From Tenacibaculum tangerinum (GTDB lineage: Bacteria; Bacteroidota; Bacteroidia; Flavobacteriales; Flavobacteriaceae), in assembly GCF_029853675.1 (NCBI RefSeq), contig NZ_CP122539.1, positions 2,065,001 through 2,129,000 on the forward strand: a stretch of 64,000 nt of DNA, in the 5' to 3' direction. Positions 1 through 5,021 of this stretch are shown here, piece by piece. The notes beneath the pieces are model-generated. The model made no database searches. It saw nothing but the letters and a program-made list of their open reading frames with translations, and was not told the origin of the DNA. Both the position numbers and the translations under genes were made by a program. The first letter of the stretch is position 1; each line of letters opens with the position of its first letter.

Positions 1-168
1 ACTGTAACCACCACCCAAGTTAACGCAGAATACTCACAGAAGTACAGTTATTCTGCTGAAGGATCTAGTTTATTACAAACAAAATTAGTACCTATTCCAC
101 CCCCAGCAATTTTAGAAGAACGCATTCAACAGCAAATGGAAATAGCAAGAGAGGAAGCTGAAAACTAG
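1..168 (+). CDS. C-terminal fragment of a beta-rich cassette protein (DUF2589-like?)
   Basis: The open frame enters from the left edge and ends at TAG 166-168, giving the last 55 residues. The tail has the pattern SQKYSYSAEGSS, then TKLVPIPPP, then EERIQQQ, and it matches the tail of the next gene nearly residue for residue. The two are therefore tandem paralogues. No function can be assigned. The alternating polar/hydrophobic segment ending in a proline-rich stretch resembles my memory of DUF2589 proteins, but this is weak. The next gene starts 5 nt downstream, which suggests one operon. Confidence 0.7.
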   Translation, partial: TVTTTQVNAEYSQKYSYSAEGSSLLQTKLVPIPPPAILEERIQQQMEIAREEAEN

Positions 169-173
169 TGTAA

Positions 174-677
174 ATGGGTAGAATAACCAGAGAAATACAA
201 AATGCACCCTTACCAGAAATGGTTAAAAGTTTGGGTATTGGTATTGCACAGGCTCAACGTGCCTTAGACAGAGTTTCTATGGATTTAGCGAAGGAGCTTG
301 TTCATACCAAAATAGAAATGGGAGGAGAAGAGTATAGCCTACTAGCACTAGGCTTTACTCCTACTTTCTACCAGTATGTAGATACTTTTTTTGAATGTAA
401 AATGTCAGTATCTATGGTGGAGTCTAGAGAATTTGGTGCCTCAGTATCGGCTAGTGCCGGATTTAACGTAGGTTTTGCTGCTGTTAGCGCTACAGTATCT
501 GCAAGCTACTCTCAAAAATATCAATATTCTGCTGAAGCAAGCTCACTTATTAGAACCAAATTGGTTACAGTGCCTAACCCGCCGGTGTTTGAGCAACGTT
601 TACAAAGTATGATTGAAGCAGAACTAGAAAGTAAAAGAAATCCGAATACCACAACACCTACTAATACCAATTCATAA
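174..677 (+). CDS. Beta-rich cassette protein, 167 aa, paralogue of the preceding gene
   Basis: Function unknown. There is no signal peptide or membrane segment, so it is probably cytoplasmic. Residues 1-45 form an amphipathic helix with GIGIAQAQRALD. A GFTPTFYQ motif follows at about 62-69. A Ser/Ala/Val-rich beta region at about 80-125 then leads to TKLVTVPNPP and a short charged helix. The same order (AQxALD, G-F/Y-xPTFY, beta region, V-P-x-PP) recurs in the 4188 gene and partly in the 1967 gene, so these look like diverged copies of one building block. It starts 5 nt after one cassette gene and ends 3 nt before the next, so it is surely co-transcribed. A relation to DUF2589 is possible but unproven. 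Confidence 0.8.
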   Translation: MGRITREIQNAPLPEMVKSLGIGIAQAQRALDRVSMDLAKELVHTKIEMGGEEYSLLALGFTPTFYQYVDTFFECKMSVSMVESREFGASVSASAGFNVGFAAVSATVSASYSQKYQYSAEASSLIRTKLVTVPNPPVFEQRLQSMIEAELESKRNPNTTTPTNTNS

Positions 678-680
678 ACC

Positions 681-1955
681 ATGGCTAAGCATTGGAAAAG
701 TTTTGTTAAGAAAGAAAAAACTCCAGAACAAAAAGAAGAGTTGGATTTTAAAACTCTTCTTTCTTCTGGAGAACAAACAAGCAAGTCTTTAGAAGAGGTA
801 GCAGACTTTAATGCTAATCTAAAATCATTATTAGATGAGCAAAAGCAGCTTGAAGACAAAATGGCTGAGCTTACTGGTAAGAAAGAAGCATCCAATACTA
901 ACAAAAAGTATGAGCATGAAATAAAATCAATCGATCAGAAAAAGAAAGAAGAAAGAACAGAAGAAAAGAAAAGACAAAAAAGTAACAAAAAACAAGAGGA
1001 TAGATGGAAGGTTGACATACCTGTTCAAAAAAAAACAAAAGAACCTTCTATTTCTATTCCCTCAAAAATCTTAACTAAAAAGAAAAAAGAAAATGGTTTC
1101 ATTCAAGCTAAAAAAACAATTGATGCTTCTATAACAACTATTAAGCAGCGTAAGAAAAAAGCAGAAAAATCAGGAATAAAAATTACCAAACAAAATAAAA
1201 CGAACCTAACTAACACAATTAGGAAAGTTAAAGAAGGAAAAGACCAAATAGAAATAGTACAAAAACAGCTAAAAAAATCGCTTTTTAGTGTTGATCAAAA
1301 AACAAAACAAAAAACTAAACCTGTATCCACACTTATTAAAAAGGCTAAAAAAGTACAGAATTTAGTTATTGAAACACGGAAAGAGAGTAAAAAAACAAGC
1401 AGTTTAATAGCAAACCCTATTCAAAAGAAAGAAAAAAACACGAACGAATCATTTCCTAAATTAAAGGAAAACAAGCCCCTGAAAACTACAATGACAACTG
1501 TTAAAAAAGCGGTGAATACTTACCAAAATATCAAGCAAGTAAGTCCCAAAGTAATTTCAGGATTACAACAACTCTCTACAAACGCAAAGGCTATAAGTGT
1601 TGGCAATAATATTTCCAAAAGTGCAACGCTTGTAAATAAGTTAGATAATAGTATTAGCAAAGTAGATCAGCTTTTTAATACTGCTAACAAATATCTAAAT
1701 AAGACTACGAAAACAGTTGGGTTGATAGATAAGAAAGTAGAAATATTTAATACAATTTATAATAAAGAAAAGAAAACAGCTAATGCCTTTGATTTAGGCT
1801 TTATTCAAAATCAAAAATCAAAAAAAGAAGAAAATCAAAACTTTAATGTGAGTAATAAAAAACTTTCAGTAGATATAAATACGATAAAAAAAGTAAAAAA
1901 AGGAATAGACACATTAAAGAGTTCTAAAAATAAAAAAGATAGTTTTTCATTTTAA
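681..1955 (+). CDS. Lys-rich coiled-coil protein, 424 aa, unknown
   Basis: No family is recognised. The protein is extremely rich in Lys, Asn, Thr and Ser, with few aromatic residues, no signal peptide and no membrane segment. Residues about 30-120 are charged helix (E/K/Q runs). The middle is basic and low in complexity. Residues about 265-400 show regularly spaced hydrophobic residues (VNKLDNSISKVDQLF type) that suggest a long helical rod. The A-run at 1027-1035 is nine bases and stays in frame, so the length looks correct. It could be a nucleic-acid-binding or filament/scaffold protein; both are inference from composition. It lies 3 nt after the previous gene and 11 nt before the next. Confidence 0.75.
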   Translation: MAKHWKSFVKKEKTPEQKEELDFKTLLSSGEQTSKSLEEVADFNANLKSLLDEQKQLEDKMAELTGKKEASNTNKKYEHEIKSIDQKKKEERTEEKKRQKSNKKQEDRWKVDIPVQKKTKEPSISIPSKILTKKKKENGFIQAKKTIDASITTIKQRKKKAEKSGIKITKQNKTNLTNTIRKVKEGKDQIEIVQKQLKKSLFSVDQKTKQKTKPVSTLIKKAKKVQNLVIETRKESKKTSSLIANPIQKKEKNTNESFPKLKENKPLKTTMTTVKKAVNTYQNIKQVSPKVISGLQQLSTNAKAISVGNNISKSATLVNKLDNSISKVDQLFNTANKYLNKTTKTVGLIDKKVEIFNTIYNKEKKTANAFDLGFIQNQKSKKEENQNFNVSNKKLSVDINTIKKVKKGIDTLKSSKNKKDSFSF

Positions 1956-1966
1956 AACGCAATACA

Positions 1967-2677
1967 ATGAGTTCAGTTAATAACGCATTAACCTTAAAAC
2001 AAATACTATTAGGGATTTCCGATAGCTTAAACGAAGCCCAAAATCATCTCAGAAATATAAAACCTTACGATGAGTTTGGAAGACCTAATACATTATATAC
2101 CTTACCATACCTAGATTTTAATCTTCAAGTAGAAGCAGAATTTGAAAAAGAAACGACTAGTGAAGCTCAAAAAAGTAATAGGTTTACTGAGAGTCAACCG
2201 CTTCCTTATCAACCTCATAAACAAGCATATGAAAAAACAATCGCATTTAAACCTGTTACCAACAGTACAACTAACTCTAAAGAAACCAATAAGATAACCA
2301 GTACTATTTCTGGTCGATTTGTAGCTATTGTACCTAATGAAGGACTACCACAGCTTATTATAAATGCAGTACCTAAAAAAACAACTACTATTCATATATA
2401 TGATATAGATGTGGAAGTAATTAACGCTGCAGGAGAAAAAATTTCAGATGCCCTAGTAGAGTTTAATTATAATCAAGAAAAAACAGAAAAATTAAACCCA
2501 AATGCTACACTAAATCATGGGACTTCATTTTTAAATGCAAGTGAAATTAGAACGGATGAAAACGGAAAAGCTTCCGCCCAAGTTAAAGTTGATGCAGTAG
2601 ATGTTGCCAACGGACACATTTTAATTTTAGATGTAAACATAGGAAATGTATTAACTAAAATTTCAATACAACAATAA
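1967..2677 (+). CDS. Cassette protein with C-terminal Ig-like beta domain, 236 aa
   Basis: Function unknown. Residues 1-35 are helical (ISDSLNEAQNHLR), echoing the AQxxL helix of the neighbours. Residues about 45-60 carry NTLYTLPYLDFNL, in the place of the PTFY motif. Residues about 110-125 form a strand ending in FVAIVPNEG. The last 100 residues (EVINAAGEKISDALVEF, then ENGKASAQVKV) look like a bacterial Ig-like (Big_1-type) sandwich, in which A-x-V-x-F and T/NG-x-A are typical. There is no export signal, which is odd for an Ig-like fold. It ends 3 nt before the next ATG, so translation is probably coupled. Confidence 0.75.
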   Translation: MSSVNNALTLKQILLGISDSLNEAQNHLRNIKPYDEFGRPNTLYTLPYLDFNLQVEAEFEKETTSEAQKSNRFTESQPLPYQPHKQAYEKTIAFKPVTNSTTNSKETNKITSTISGRFVAIVPNEGLPQLIINAVPKKTTTIHIYDIDVEVINAAGEKISDALVEFNYNQEKTEKLNPNATLNHGTSFLNASEIRTDENGKASAQVKVDAVDVANGHILILDVNIGNVLTKISIQQ

Positions 2678-2680
2678 GTT

Positions 2681-4180
2681 ATGATAACGGATATAGAATT
2701 TTTACAGTTTAAAGGTCAATTGTTTGATGCCTCAAACCAATCCATAACAGGTGTTGAAGTTGTTGTTCAGTTCTACAATATAAATCTGAATTCTTGGGTT
2801 TCTTTAACAGAGGCTTTAATGATAAAAGCATCAAAATTTTCACATACAATTGAAATCCCAGATAGAATATCAACAACTAATCAAACAATTCGAATTGTTA
2901 GAGAAATTATTAAATCAGGAGGAGTACCTACATTCAGAATTATAAAATTTACAGCAGAAAAAGAGCTTCCAAAAGTTATTGCTTCAGACTTCACTGTAAG
3001 TATAAATAAAGAAAAATTACTATTAGATATTAACTTTGGTACAAATTGGCTCCTAAAAAACGAAGCCATTATTAATGCAAAAACACACGTTATTATAGCT
3101 TCTTCACTACGCATTTTTGAGTTTGATAACGCAATGTTAACTGTAGAAAAAGAAAAAGAAGAATTGTTGAAAGAAAAAACTACAGTAGAGGGACAATTAG
3201 TGAATTTAAACACTGCTATAAATAGTTTAAGCCAAGAAAAAGAAATATTAACTTCAGAATTTAACTTAGTAAGAACTCAGGCGGAAGATAAAGAAGAGTT
3301 ATTAGGAGAATTAAATACAAGCCTTACATTATTAAATACACAGTTAGAAGAAGAAATTCAAGAAAAAAAAGAGTTACAAGAATATACAACTACTTTAGAA
3401 AATCAGATTTCAGTATTAGAAAATACGATTGTAGAACTCGAAGCTAAAGATGCTGAAAACTTTGAAGCAAAATTTTTAGAGCTGCAAAAAAAAGTAATAG
3501 ATTTAGAAAGAACACAAGAAAATTCACTGCAAGAAAAAGAAGCTTTTTTATCAAGTATTGATAAACTTCAGAATGATATAAAAATAAGTCAAGAAGCTAT
3601 CAGTACAAGAGACATGGAGTTAGCCGCTTCACAAACATTAATAGATTCTTTGGTGCAAAAAAACGCAAAAATAACTAACGAATTGGAAGAAATTAAAGAG
3701 TTTAATGCGATTGAACACCCTAACAAATTATCTGCTAGCAAAGTATATGGTAGCATAGTAAAAGATGTGATTAAGGCAGATGAAGAACTATTGAATTCAA
3801 AATATAAACTTGCTAATATTTCATTAAACTTAAAAACTACTGTTGAAAAAGGCCCAGAAGGCACCATGCTAGGTCTAATTGATTTCGAAAGCGCCAAAGG
3901 AATCAACGGAGCAGCGGTTAGTGATATTAGTATTGATATTGTACCCAACCCTACAGCTATTGAAACTGTAGGAAGAAAAATGCCAAACCTTTTAGGGTTA
4001 ACTGAAACTGCTGTTCGAAAAATACTATTAGACCATGAGCTAAAACTAGATGCAGTTTACCATCCTACTAATGATTCTAATTTAATATCAGGACAATCCT
4101 TTAAACAATCTCCGGCACCAGGAGCTAATATAGAAGAAGGACAAGAAGTTATTGTCATATTCGCAAAACCATTAAACTAA
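2681..4180 (+). CDS. Beta domain - long coiled coil - PASTA protein, 499 aa
   Basis: There is no signal peptide. Residues 1-115 are beta-rich (FKGQLFDASNQSITGVEVVVQF, like a carboxypeptidase-regulatory or Ig-type fold). Residues about 145-340 form an uninterrupted Glu/Lys/Leu coiled coil. Residues about 345-420 repeat the cassette plan: a helix, then beta strands ending in DISIDIVPNP. Residues about 432-497 form a PASTA-like domain, starting MPNLLGLTETAVRKIL and ending QSPAPGANIEEGQEVIVIF. PASTA domains are known from extracellular parts of Ser/Thr kinases and penicillin-binding proteins, so a copy on an apparently cytosolic coiled-coil protein is unusual. Two 8-base A-runs (3363-3370, 3486-3493) stay in frame. 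The role is likely structural. Confidence 0.8.
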   Translation: MITDIEFLQFKGQLFDASNQSITGVEVVVQFYNINLNSWVSLTEALMIKASKFSHTIEIPDRISTTNQTIRIVREIIKSGGVPTFRIIKFTAEKELPKVIASDFTVSINKEKLLLDINFGTNWLLKNEAIINAKTHVIIASSLRIFEFDNAMLTVEKEKEELLKEKTTVEGQLVNLNTAINSLSQEKEILTSEFNLVRTQAEDKEELLGELNTSLTLLNTQLEEEIQEKKELQEYTTTLENQISVLENTIVELEAKDAENFEAKFLELQKKVIDLERTQENSLQEKEAFLSSIDKLQNDIKISQEAISTRDMELAASQTLIDSLVQKNAKITNELEEIKEFNAIEHPNKLSASKVYGSIVKDVIKADEELLNSKYKLANISLNLKTTVEKGPEGTMLGLIDFESAKGINGAAVSDISIDIVPNPTAIETVGRKMPNLLGLTETAVRKILLDHELKLDAVYHPTNDSNLISGQSFKQSPAPGANIEEGQEVIVIFAKPLN

Positions 4181-4187
4181 AAAAATT

Positions 4188-4846
4188 ATGTCAAGCAATT
4201 CATACGATTATGTAAAAGATGCCTTTGCAGCACCCTTAGGAGACTTTATAGCTTCTATTGGAGAAGGAGTTGGAGAAGCGCAAGCTGCCTTAGATGAAGG
4301 TTCATTACGTCAAACCTTAGAAATCTATAACAGTGATCCTGATAAATCTCCTGAAATTTTAAAAATGTTGCGAGATGTTGGGTATCAGCCTACGTTTTAT
4401 ACGATACCTAAAACTACGGCCAAAGCAAAAATATCACTATCCATATCACAACAAAGTACAAATGGGTCTGTACAAAACTCTAGAGCATTTAAACCTAAAA
4501 TGTATGCTACACCGGTAAATGCTTCTAATGCAAATAAATATAACTTAGGATTAAATGCAACTGCAGAAATTCAGTTTGACATTGTACCAGTACCACCTTC
4601 TGACACACAAATTATTCGATTTTTACCAAACGTAATTGAAAAAAACGTTTTAGATGATGACGGTATAGAGATTACAAAAAAAGAAGCTTCAAGGAAATTA
4701 GAACATTGTTAACCGAATATGGTTTAGAATATAGTTTTGGTGAAACAGTAGATACAGAAAAAGTTACTGATGAGTCTACATTTTCAAAGCAAACTCCAAG
4801 TCCAGGAACAATGATTCGAAATGGTAATTCTATATTATTGGAATAG
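4188..4846 (+). CDS. Cassette protein with C-terminal PASTA domain, interrupted by -1 frameshift
   Basis: The first frame encodes 174 aa and stops at 4710-4712. It has the cassette plan: EGVGEAQAALDEG helix, VGYQPTFYTI, beta region, DIVPVPPS. The PASTA domain starts in this frame (FLPNVIE) but continues in the -1 frame (KEIRTLLTEYGLEYSFGE, then KQTPSPGTMIRNGN) to TAG 4844-4846. The switch point is the A-run 4676-4682. There the zero-frame codons read A_AAA_AAA, a canonical -1 slippery heptamer, and one more A would also restore a single frame of 219 aa. Programmed frameshifting, a real indel and a homopolymer miscall are all possible. This is the last gene of the cassette. Confidence 0.7.
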
Positions 4847-4907: not shown

Positions 4908-4935
4908 AAAAAAGCCTCTCAATTTCTTGAGAGGC
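4908..4935 (-). terminator. Rho-independent terminator of the tRNA gene
   Basis: A perfect 9-bp stem (GCCTCTCAA / TTGAGAGGC) with a TTTC loop is followed, in the minus direction, by six T. It lies 13 nt beyond the 3' end of the minus-strand tRNA. On the plus strand it also separates the upstream cassette from era. Confidence 0.85.
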
Positions 4936-4948
4936 TCATCATTTTTAG

Positions 4949-5021
<73 letters not shown>

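What the first reader, a model, noticed from the sequence alone, without database searches (positions are those of the whole stretch)
1..4846. Undescribed six-gene cassette of signal-less beta-rich proteins, coiled-coil rods and PASTA domains
Six adjacent same-strand genes with gaps of 2-11 nt share a recurring plan: an AQxALD-type helix, a G-(F/Y)-xPTFY or LYTLPY motif, a Ser/Ala/Val beta region, and a strand ending (I/V)VPxP. They are combined with an Ig-like domain, a ~200-residue coiled coil, a Lys-rich rod and two PASTA domains, with no export signals, enzymes or membrane helices. This looks like the parts list of a cytoplasmic multi-subunit structure (shell, tube or scaffold) rather than a pathway. 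The locus continues beyond the left edge.
Basis: partly seen in the sequence, partly recalled or inferred. Interest (0 to 1): 0.75.

Follow-up and report, generated by a model that had tools for sequence, protein, structure and literature searches.

The report
Ten-gene operon with swappable wall-binding module
Ten neighbouring genes, found in the same order in bacteria of distant phyla, encode a set of related proteins that are predicted to assemble into one structure that would grip the bacterial cell wall, and one of its parts has been swapped between relatives like an exchangeable tool head; no system in the libraries searched matches it.

Summary
The six window genes are the 3' part of a ten-gene operon that begins 4.7 kb left of the window: L12-like, TPR, OMPA, D1, D2, D3, K, IG, CC, D4. 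In 73 loci the order of the called genes never differs: Bacteroidota, Alpha-, Beta- and Gammaproteobacteria, single MAGs of other phyla; 32 hold all ten by my crude calling. Six proteins share a domain (long helix, long beta hairpin, VPxP, helix) that Pfam, NCBIfam, PHROGs and PADLOC do not name; it is probably a remote sister of DUF2589. OmpA-type and PASTA domains are fused on, yet no export signal, membrane helix or enzyme was found. In OMPA the OmpA-bearing insert exists in two versions, about 20% identical, that were exchanged between relatives while the other genes stayed 66-96% identical; trees reject a common history. The operon is accessory (5 of 97 genomes of the genus) and under purifying selection. 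I favour one cytoplasm-built, wall-gripping assembly with an exchangeable recognition head. Assembly, wall binding and role are inferred. The window's last gene is broken before its PASTA domain.

The parts
1..168 (+). 3' end of gene 5 (D2; whole gene G000:C1:2064254-2065168, 304 aa): helix, variable insert, hairpin domain
   Evidence: profile match D2-D3 100%, D1-D2 99.7%
174..677 (+). gene 6 (D3, P0006, 167 aa): the bare hairpin domain: long helix, GFTPTFY motif, long beta hairpin, VPNP, C-terminal helix
   Evidence: AF2 model, pLDDT 67.9, helix 13-44, strands 65-86 and 113-133, helix 137-155
681..1955 (+). gene 7 (K, P0007, 424 aa): Lys-rich basic protein (family median pI 10.0, length 214-489)
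   Evidence: no family
1967..2677 (+). gene 8 (IG, P0008, 236 aa): divergent hairpin domain followed by an Ig-like (Big_1-type, sub-threshold) part
   Evidence: (IG N-part against D4 92.7%, against D1-D3 4-9%)
2681..4180 (+). gene 9 (CC, P0009, 499 aa): beta-rich N-part, about 200-residue coiled coil, short linker domain, PASTA
   Evidence: PASTA at E 0.1 or better in 27 of 27 family members scanned, own included
4188..4712 (+). gene 10 (D4, P0010, 174 aa): hairpin domain; reading frame ends before its PASTA domain
   Evidence: family median 223 aa, 46 members
4676..4682 (+). run of A in which the two reading frames of gene 10 meet
4682..4846 (+). PASTA part of gene 10 in the -1 frame
4913..4936 (+). 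terminator-like stem-loop behind the operon (pattern match only; such matches are no more frequent here than in shuffles)
4948..5021 (-). tRNA-Met bordering the operon; an integration site in two of three close relatives looked at

Best explanation
The locus is the 3' six genes of a ten-gene operon that likely encodes one non-enzymatic, multi-subunit assembly whose related helix-and-hairpin subunits are predicted to pack together in the cytoplasm, and whose OmpA-type and PASTA domains would let it grip peptidoglycan. Shown by calls: the ten genes and their order; one domain repeated in OMPA, D1, D2, D3, D4 and (more weakly) IG; OmpA and PASTA domains; lack of detected signals, membrane helices and enzymes; purifying selection; accessory distribution; exchange of the OmpA-bearing insert. 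Inferred: (1) the L12-like and TPR proteins, first in the operon, act as assembly helpers; (2) D1-D4, IG and OMPA subunits join through their helices and hairpin bases into a mixed ring or tube; (3) the hairpin of OMPA holds its large insert out from the body, and the PASTA domains of CC and D4 add further wall contacts; (4) the Lys-rich K protein and the coiled-coil CC protein are inner or linking rods; (5) the structure meets peptidoglycan by a route without Sec export, most simply after lysis of the producing cell or by passing the envelope itself; (6) the exchanged insert sets what is recognised, so the likely setting is conflict between bacteria or with phages. Steps 1-6 are untested.
For: Ten-gene operon. 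Unit in other genomes: 72 loci besides the own genome; hairpin-domain genes in 73 of 73, OMPA in 70, L12 in 67, IG and CC in 55 each, TPR in 52, K in 44, all ten in 32 of 73; no changed order in the 73 rows; no other neighbour is regular (next gene cluster 17 loci). One domain: (D1/D2/D3/D4/OMPA-N mutually 97.7-100%; OMPA-C 95-99% against D1-D3, 38% against D4; IG 93% against D4; unrelated L12/TPR/K controls at most 2.1%). OmpA match at E 0.1 or better in 29 of 29 OMPA members scanned, wall-contact residues D in 66 and R in 70 of 70; PASTA in 27 of 27 CC members scanned and in 4 of 6 D4 relatives. No signals: hydrophobic N-terminus in 1 of 524 proteins. Selection: dN/dS 0.03-0.24 for all ten against the nearest relative, T. 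agarivorans. Module exchange: L028/L029 share 93% over TPR+D1+D3 but 21% over the insert; L018's insert is 67% identical to L027's but 20% to L006's, whose scaffold is nearer; sharp borders inside the gene; trees reject one history both ways (p-AU 2e-4 and 7e-6). Accessory: 5 of 97 genomes of the genus; 4 of 395 of the phylum, three of them with a short variant. Amidase_2-type gene near the 3' end in 5 of 73 loci (Pfam run on 3 of the 5).
Confidence: 0.45

Rival explanations
1. The subunits form a membrane-inserting beta barrel: each hairpin contributes two strands, as in pore-forming proteins, and the complex is released by lysis and acts on other cells.
For: The first Foldseek rows in PDB for P0004 are long-hairpin pore formers (CDTb, anthrax PA, lysenin), best E 0.055. 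Strand patterns alternate polar and apolar residues in D2 and D4 more than in shuffles (0.010 and 0.023). No export signal found, as expected for lysis release.
Against: All PDB matches are insignificant and may only reflect a long hairpin; the same lists hold FliF rings, SpoIIIAG and phage tail or collar proteins. Alternation is not significant in D1 and D3 (0.060, 0.33). OmpA and PASTA are not known parts of pores (recalled).
Confidence: 0.15
2. It is a cytosolic conflict or defence system in which OmpA/PASTA parts sense wall fragments or wall damage and trigger a response.
For: Accessory, patchy, swapped module, tRNA-linked site. iSTAND conflict systems carry OmpA, PASTA and other wall domains (passages of PMC7159879).
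Against: No NTPase, nuclease, protease or toxin family over its cut-off in the ten proteins and no PADLOC match beyond coiled-coil and weak ones; in the cited systems the wall domains typically follow a membrane segment, not found here.
Confidence: 0.15
3. It is a static envelope or cell-shape scaffold, built inside and tied to the wall by unknown export.
For: Wall-binding domains, rods, no enzymes found.
Against: It is an accessory, in 5 of 97 genomes of the genus, which housekeeping scaffolds rarely are (recalled), and a shape scaffold gives no reason for module exchange.
Confidence: 0.12
4. It is a domesticated phage tail, collar or tailocin cluster.
For: Viral model library: one significant match (A0A516MP19, unnamed, E 5e-7, TM 0.45) and weak ones to collar and lower-collar proteins; Ig-type domains (PF02368) on two of the 120 listed D1 relatives.
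Against: No relative of D1/D3 in viral contigs by two pattern scans or in 50,697 phage records by tblastn; PHROGs gives only weak matches to families of unknown function; no sheath, baseplate, terminase or portal family in the operon.
Confidence: 0.08

Closest known systems
DUF2589 (PF11655), function unknown
   Same: Same order: N-terminal helix with an AQ motif, a middle motif with P before a long strand, polar hairpin, C-terminal P and helix (read); D1 aligns co-linearly over 144 columns and scores 33.3 against at most 24.5 in 100 column shuffles. The own genome holds a true DUF2589 gene elsewhere.
   Different: D1 relatives do not pass the Pfam model: 1 of 78 matches, E 0.065; hhalign probability is 36% for D1 and 1.2% and 0.2% for D3 and D4. 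The DUF2589 loci read (own 18 kb, five others of about 3.5 kb) show no L12, TPR, OMPA, K or CC gene, but the short stretches limit this.
OmpA C-terminal-like / Pal peptidoglycan-binding domain
   Same: Profile hits Pal at E 9e-19; contact residues kept.
   Different: Sits in a protein without detected signal, inserted in the hairpin of another domain; the own copy is 0.6 bit under Pfam's cut-off.
PASTA domain (PknB type)
   Same: 27 of 27 CC members scanned match; PASTA-bearing kinases are the first PDB rows.
   Different: Behind a coiled coil or hairpin domain, no kinase, no membrane segment found.
Ribosomal protein L7/L12 C-terminal domain
   Same: Profile of gene 1 hits L7/L12 at E 4e-4, at two places in different rows, about 9-78 and 230-295.
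   Different: Multi-domain 350-residue protein; Pfam match in only 12 of 29 members at E 0.1; not a ribosomal protein.
iSTAND-type conflict systems with OmpA/PASTA effectors (PMC7159879, passages seen)
   Same: Wall-binding domains OmpA and PASTA.
   Different: No NTPase or STAND core, no membrane segment found here.

Membership tests
DUF2589 (PF11655) | match to the Pfam model over its cut-off | tested here: not met
   (1 of 78 members, E 0.065); none for P0004-P0006
DUF2589 (PF11655) | common ancestry by profile comparison | tested here: inconclusive
   D1 36% probability, above 100 of 100 shuffles; all D together 27.9 against at most 19.6 in 60 shuffles; D3 and D4 alone about 1% or less
OmpA C-like domain (in OMPA) | profile match and the conserved Asp and Arg | tested here: met
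   Pal E 9e-19; 29 of 29 at E 0.1; D 66 of 70, R 70 of 70; against: own protein 26.6 bits, cut-off 27.2, L029 no Pfam match at 0.05 though it has the motif
PASTA domain (in CC and D4) | Pfam match over cut-off | tested here: met
   CC. D4: 4 of 6 relatives; the window's own copy is 0.1 bit under the cut-off and in another frame
L7/L12 C-terminal domain (in gene 1) | profile match | tested here: inconclusive
   significant to PDB rows, under Pfam's cut-off in the own protein
beta-barrel pore-forming proteins | fold | tested here: inconclusive
beta-barrel pore-forming proteins | pore formation in membranes | not testable with these tools
   needs protein
phage tails, tailocins, extracellular contractile injection systems | sheath, tube or baseplate gene families | tested here: not met
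   none in the ten genes
known anti-phage defence systems | PADLOC model match of core genes | tested here: not met
   (only weak or coiled-coil matches)
iSTAND / vWA-MoxR conflict systems | STAND or MoxR NTPase core | tested here: not met

The most novel reading that the evidence does not exclude
A new class of bacterial nanomachine, not derived from phage tails: a hairpin-built tube or ring made in the cytoplasm, gripping peptidoglycan with OmpA and PASTA arms, and aimed by a cassette at the hairpin tip that bacteria exchange by recombination as phages exchange tail-fibre tips.
Probability: 0.2. Interest if true: 0.92.

Novelty: categorically new. Interest (0 to 1): 0.76.

Why it matters
A ten-gene unit that keeps its order from Flavobacteriia to Gammaproteobacteria, in which no enzyme or export signal was found and whose core domain none of four libraries names, is a rare kind of gap. 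If it builds one structure it adds a new kind of bacterial particle; if the swapped insert is a recognition head, that gives a direct handle (which alleles bind or hit which cells) on its role. It would also give a first context for DUF2589, a family of unknown function found here in 19 of 296 Bacteroidota genomes.

Tried and rejected
Length ruler: K and CC lengths correlate over loci (rho 0.66, n 40) but not after correction for the tree (r 0.26, p 0.12, 36 contrasts): rejected. Phage origin: two pattern scans of viral contigs and tblastn of P0004 and P0006 in phage records found nothing; only D1 and D3 were used as queries. DUF2589 itself hit one unannotated 4-kb 'Bacteriophage sp.' fragment. 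Plasmids: one Sphaerotilus plasmid holds a short five-gene variant. Recent island signature: G+C of the operon 0.324 against 0.297 left and 0.338 right, no second copy of the tRNA-Met stretch in the own genome, so the tRNA-Met site is suggestive only. Trypco2 and EACC1 (from PMC7159879): single weak Pfam matches, E 0.3 and 0.09: not pursued. Ost5, a eukaryotic family, matched 14 of 78 D1 relatives, best E 0.0017: taken as chance. Promoter and terminator scan: 31 and 6 sites, 37.0 and 4.9 in shuffles, so no more than chance. Literature: DUF2589 is in one open-access paper (listing, one passage); 'rhapidosomes', 'Trypco2', and word sets on PASTA/OmpA/TPR/Kordia/Tenacibaculum and on unexplained bacterial structures gave no description of this operon in the listings; of PMC7159879 I saw passages. 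No bioRxiv-only preprints or subscription papers were searched, so 'undescribed' is limited to that. The prevalence in Pseudomonadota was not measured (one search failed). Of relatives only the best 120 of 269 (D1) and of 741 (DUF2589) were seen; for L12 all 63 found are unnamed or 'hypothetical protein' (candidates capped).
Full report
WHAT IS THERE. The window is G000:C1:2065001-2129000 of a 3.61-Mb genome. By these genes its nearest named relative is Tenacibaculum agarivorans, and genomes of its own genus have contigs of the lengths of Tenacibaculum records, so I take it for a Tenacibaculum. The finding's genes are all there. Reading 12 kb further left shows that they are the 3' part of an operon of ten genes at G000:C1:2060285-2069846. 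In order, with names of mine: L12 (352 aa, L7/L12-type repeats), TPR (180), OMPA (608), D1 (166), D2 (304, cut by the window edge), D3 (167, window 174-677), K (424, Lys-rich, 681-1955), IG (236, 1967-2677), CC (499, coiled coil and PASTA, 2681-4180), D4 (4188-4712). A terminator-like hairpin (pattern match only) and a tRNA-Met follow.

NO LIBRARY KNOWS THE CORE. Pfam, NCBIfam, PHROGs and PADLOC give nothing for D1, D2 and D3, and only chance-level matches for D4. Of 78 members of A2 (D1 relatives and P0006) scanned against Pfam, the most frequent family is Ost5 in 14, best E 0.0017, which I take as chance; DUF2589 matches one at 0.065. Recognised are OmpA (in OMPA, 0.6 bit under the cut-off in the own protein), PASTA (in CC), a TPR motif, weak L7/L12 and Big_1 matches. 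With family profiles: Pal at E 9e-19, PASTA kinases at 5e-11, L7/L12 C-terminal domain at 4e-4, at two places of the L12-like protein. Scanned member by member at E 0.1: OmpA in 29 of 29, PASTA in 27 of 27, Ribosomal_L12 in 12 of 29; these members, own included, were chosen for diversity out of 70, 55 and 67.

A UNIT ACROSS PHYLA. A pattern scan of 84,980 species genomes found 72 loci: among them Tenacibaculum, Kordia, Crocinitomix, Fluviicola, Flavobacterium, Sediminibacterium; Marinobacter, Marinobacterium, Halomonas, Halopseudomonas, Saccharospirillum, Nitrincola, Psychromonas; Ideonella; Sphingomonas, Roseomonas; single MAGs named Gemmatimonadales, Latescibacterota and Propionibacterium. 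I called ORFs crudely and clustered them. Of 73 loci (own included) hairpin-domain genes are in 73, OMPA in 70, L12 in 67, IG and CC in 55 each, TPR in 52, K in 44; 32 hold all ten. Missing genes are partly uncertain: contigs end inside the operon in several loci, and my greedy caller lets long antisense ORFs win in G+C-rich genomes. In no row is the order of the called genes changed. No other gene is a regular neighbour: the next cluster, a response regulator, is in 17 loci. A concatenated tree of 45 loci parts Bacteroidota from Pseudomonadota with full support, save one 'Glaciecola' record that sits among Fluviicola with flanks of the same gene clusters and is probably mislabelled. All ten genes are under purifying selection against T. 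agarivorans (dN/dS 0.03-0.24).

DUF2589. The D1 relatives fail the Pfam model, but with a deep DUF2589 alignment (129 sequences) D1 aligns over 144 columns in order, 36% probability, score 33.3; 100 column shuffles reach at most 24.5. All D together score 27.9 against at most 19.6 in 60 shuffles. D3 and D4 alone give 1.2% and 0.2%. I read this as probable remote kinship, not membership. The own genome has a true DUF2589 gene 82 kb away, followed by a gene that I read as having a like layout (no Pfam match).

THE SWAPPED MODULE. In OMPA the ends are conserved and the insert is not. Over 996 pairs of loci, the 18 pairs with 90% or more identity in TPR+D1+D3 have insert identities from 0.21 to 0.93. 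The sharpest case: strains L028 (T. soleae) and L029 share 93% over that scaffold and 89% over OMPA's ends, but 21% over the insert; codon windows fall from 75-88% to 35-56% after codon 90 and return to 91-92% from codon 571. Their other nine proteins are 66-96% identical; the lowest, D2 and K, have low stretches too (D2's first 150 codons 54-75%), so D2's insert may also have moved. L018's insert is 67% identical to L027's, at 77% scaffold identity, and 20% to L006's, at 87%. In trees of 17 loci the three type-B inserts (L018, L027, L028) form one clade (100/100); the scaffold rejects that clade (p-AU 2e-4) and the inserts reject the scaffold's clade L027+L028+L029 (p-AU 7e-6). I named these groups after seeing the identities, so the p values are optimistic, but the effect is large. 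All three type-B proteins match OmpA; L029's type-A-like insert gave no Pfam match at 0.05 but keeps the motif. Across 70 OMPA rows the wall-contact Asp is kept in 66 and the Arg in 70 (that these residues contact diaminopimelate is recalled). So a domain that should bind the constant part of the wall travels inside a module that varies and moves: a constant grip with a changeable head. That reading is inference.

ACCESSORY, NOT VIRAL. Only 5 of 97 genomes of the genus and 4 of 395 of the phylum match, own included in both; the other three of those four hold a short variant of about five genes, also found on a Sphaerotilus plasmid. Viral contigs and phage records gave no relative of D1 or D3. 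In the own genome the operon lies against a tRNA-Met. In two of the three near relatives that I read, this tRNA is duplicated around other DNA with a tyrosine integrase beside it; in the third it is not. The own genome has no second copy, so an island is possible but not shown.

NO WAY OUT IS VISIBLE. Of 524 proteins of the ten families one has an N-terminal hydrophobic stretch over the threshold, 19 have any such stretch (hydropathy only). Yet three families carry wall-binding domains. In 5 of 73 loci an Amidase_2-type gene lies near the 3' end: L033 and L035 with an SH3_3 domain, L036 with CobU, and L043 and L044, not scanned, in the blastp cluster of L036. A wall-cutting neighbour fits a structure that must meet the wall, but five loci are few.

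THE BROKEN LAST GENE. In the window D4's frame ends at 4712; its PASTA part follows in the -1 frame to 4846 and is clearly homologous to the relative's (22 of 41 identical; Pfam 23.1 bits). The frames meet in a run of A at 4676-4682. Relatives have longer D4 proteins (median 223 aa over 46), and 4 of the 6 scanned show PASTA in the same frame. Assembly error, a real loss and frameshifting at the run cannot be told apart here; intact copies exist in relatives.

VERDICT. A real, conserved and, as far as the open literature searched here goes, undescribed system. Shown: anatomy, unity, the shared domain, the wall domains, the exchange. Inferred: assembly into one ring or tube, wall gripping, release without Sec, use in conflict. 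I put 0.45 on the general reading and 0.2 on the boldest one.

Noticed in passing
window 4188-4846: Last gene of the operon is broken in the own genome: hairpin domain and PASTA domain lie in different frames that meet in a run of A.
   Followed up: partly
window 4948-5021; L177, L179: tRNA-Met beside era is an integration site in two near relatives (duplicated tRNA, tyrosine integrase), so the operon may sit in an old island.
   Followed up: partly
L006:5-3429 and L006:6212-6946 (left of the window): A polyketide synthase with ketoacyl synthase and acyltransferase domains, a MatE transporter piece (179 aa; the overlapping ORF beside it was not scanned) and a DDE transposase lie left of the operon.
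   Followed up: partly
L015:8006-9901 (82 kb right of the operon): True DUF2589 gene followed by two genes without Pfam match; the first of them has, by eye, a helix, P-R-F-R motif and strand layout like the D proteins.
   Followed up: partly
L089:8078-10857; L119-L121: Short variant of the system: about 100-residue protein, two D proteins, a helix-strand protein, a coiled coil; on a Sphaerotilus plasmid and in three genomes of one Bacteroidota genus.
   Followed up: partly
model of P0006 against BFVD: Unnamed viral protein A0A516MP19 matches the D3 model at E 5e-7 (TM 0.45); its source could not be identified.
   Followed up: no
L084 (CP034120.1): Record named Glaciecola amylolytica carries a Fluviicola-type operon with Fluviicola-type flanks; the label looks wrong.
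   Followed up: no
L081, L082, L084, L087 downstream of D4: An unnamed 322-347-residue gene follows the operon within 36-99 nt in four Fluviicola-type loci; no Pfam match in the two scanned.
   Followed up: partly
L033:11843-12706, L035:11830-12693: Amidase_2 + SH3_3 gene without an evident signal behind the operon in Nitrincola-type loci.
   Followed up: partly
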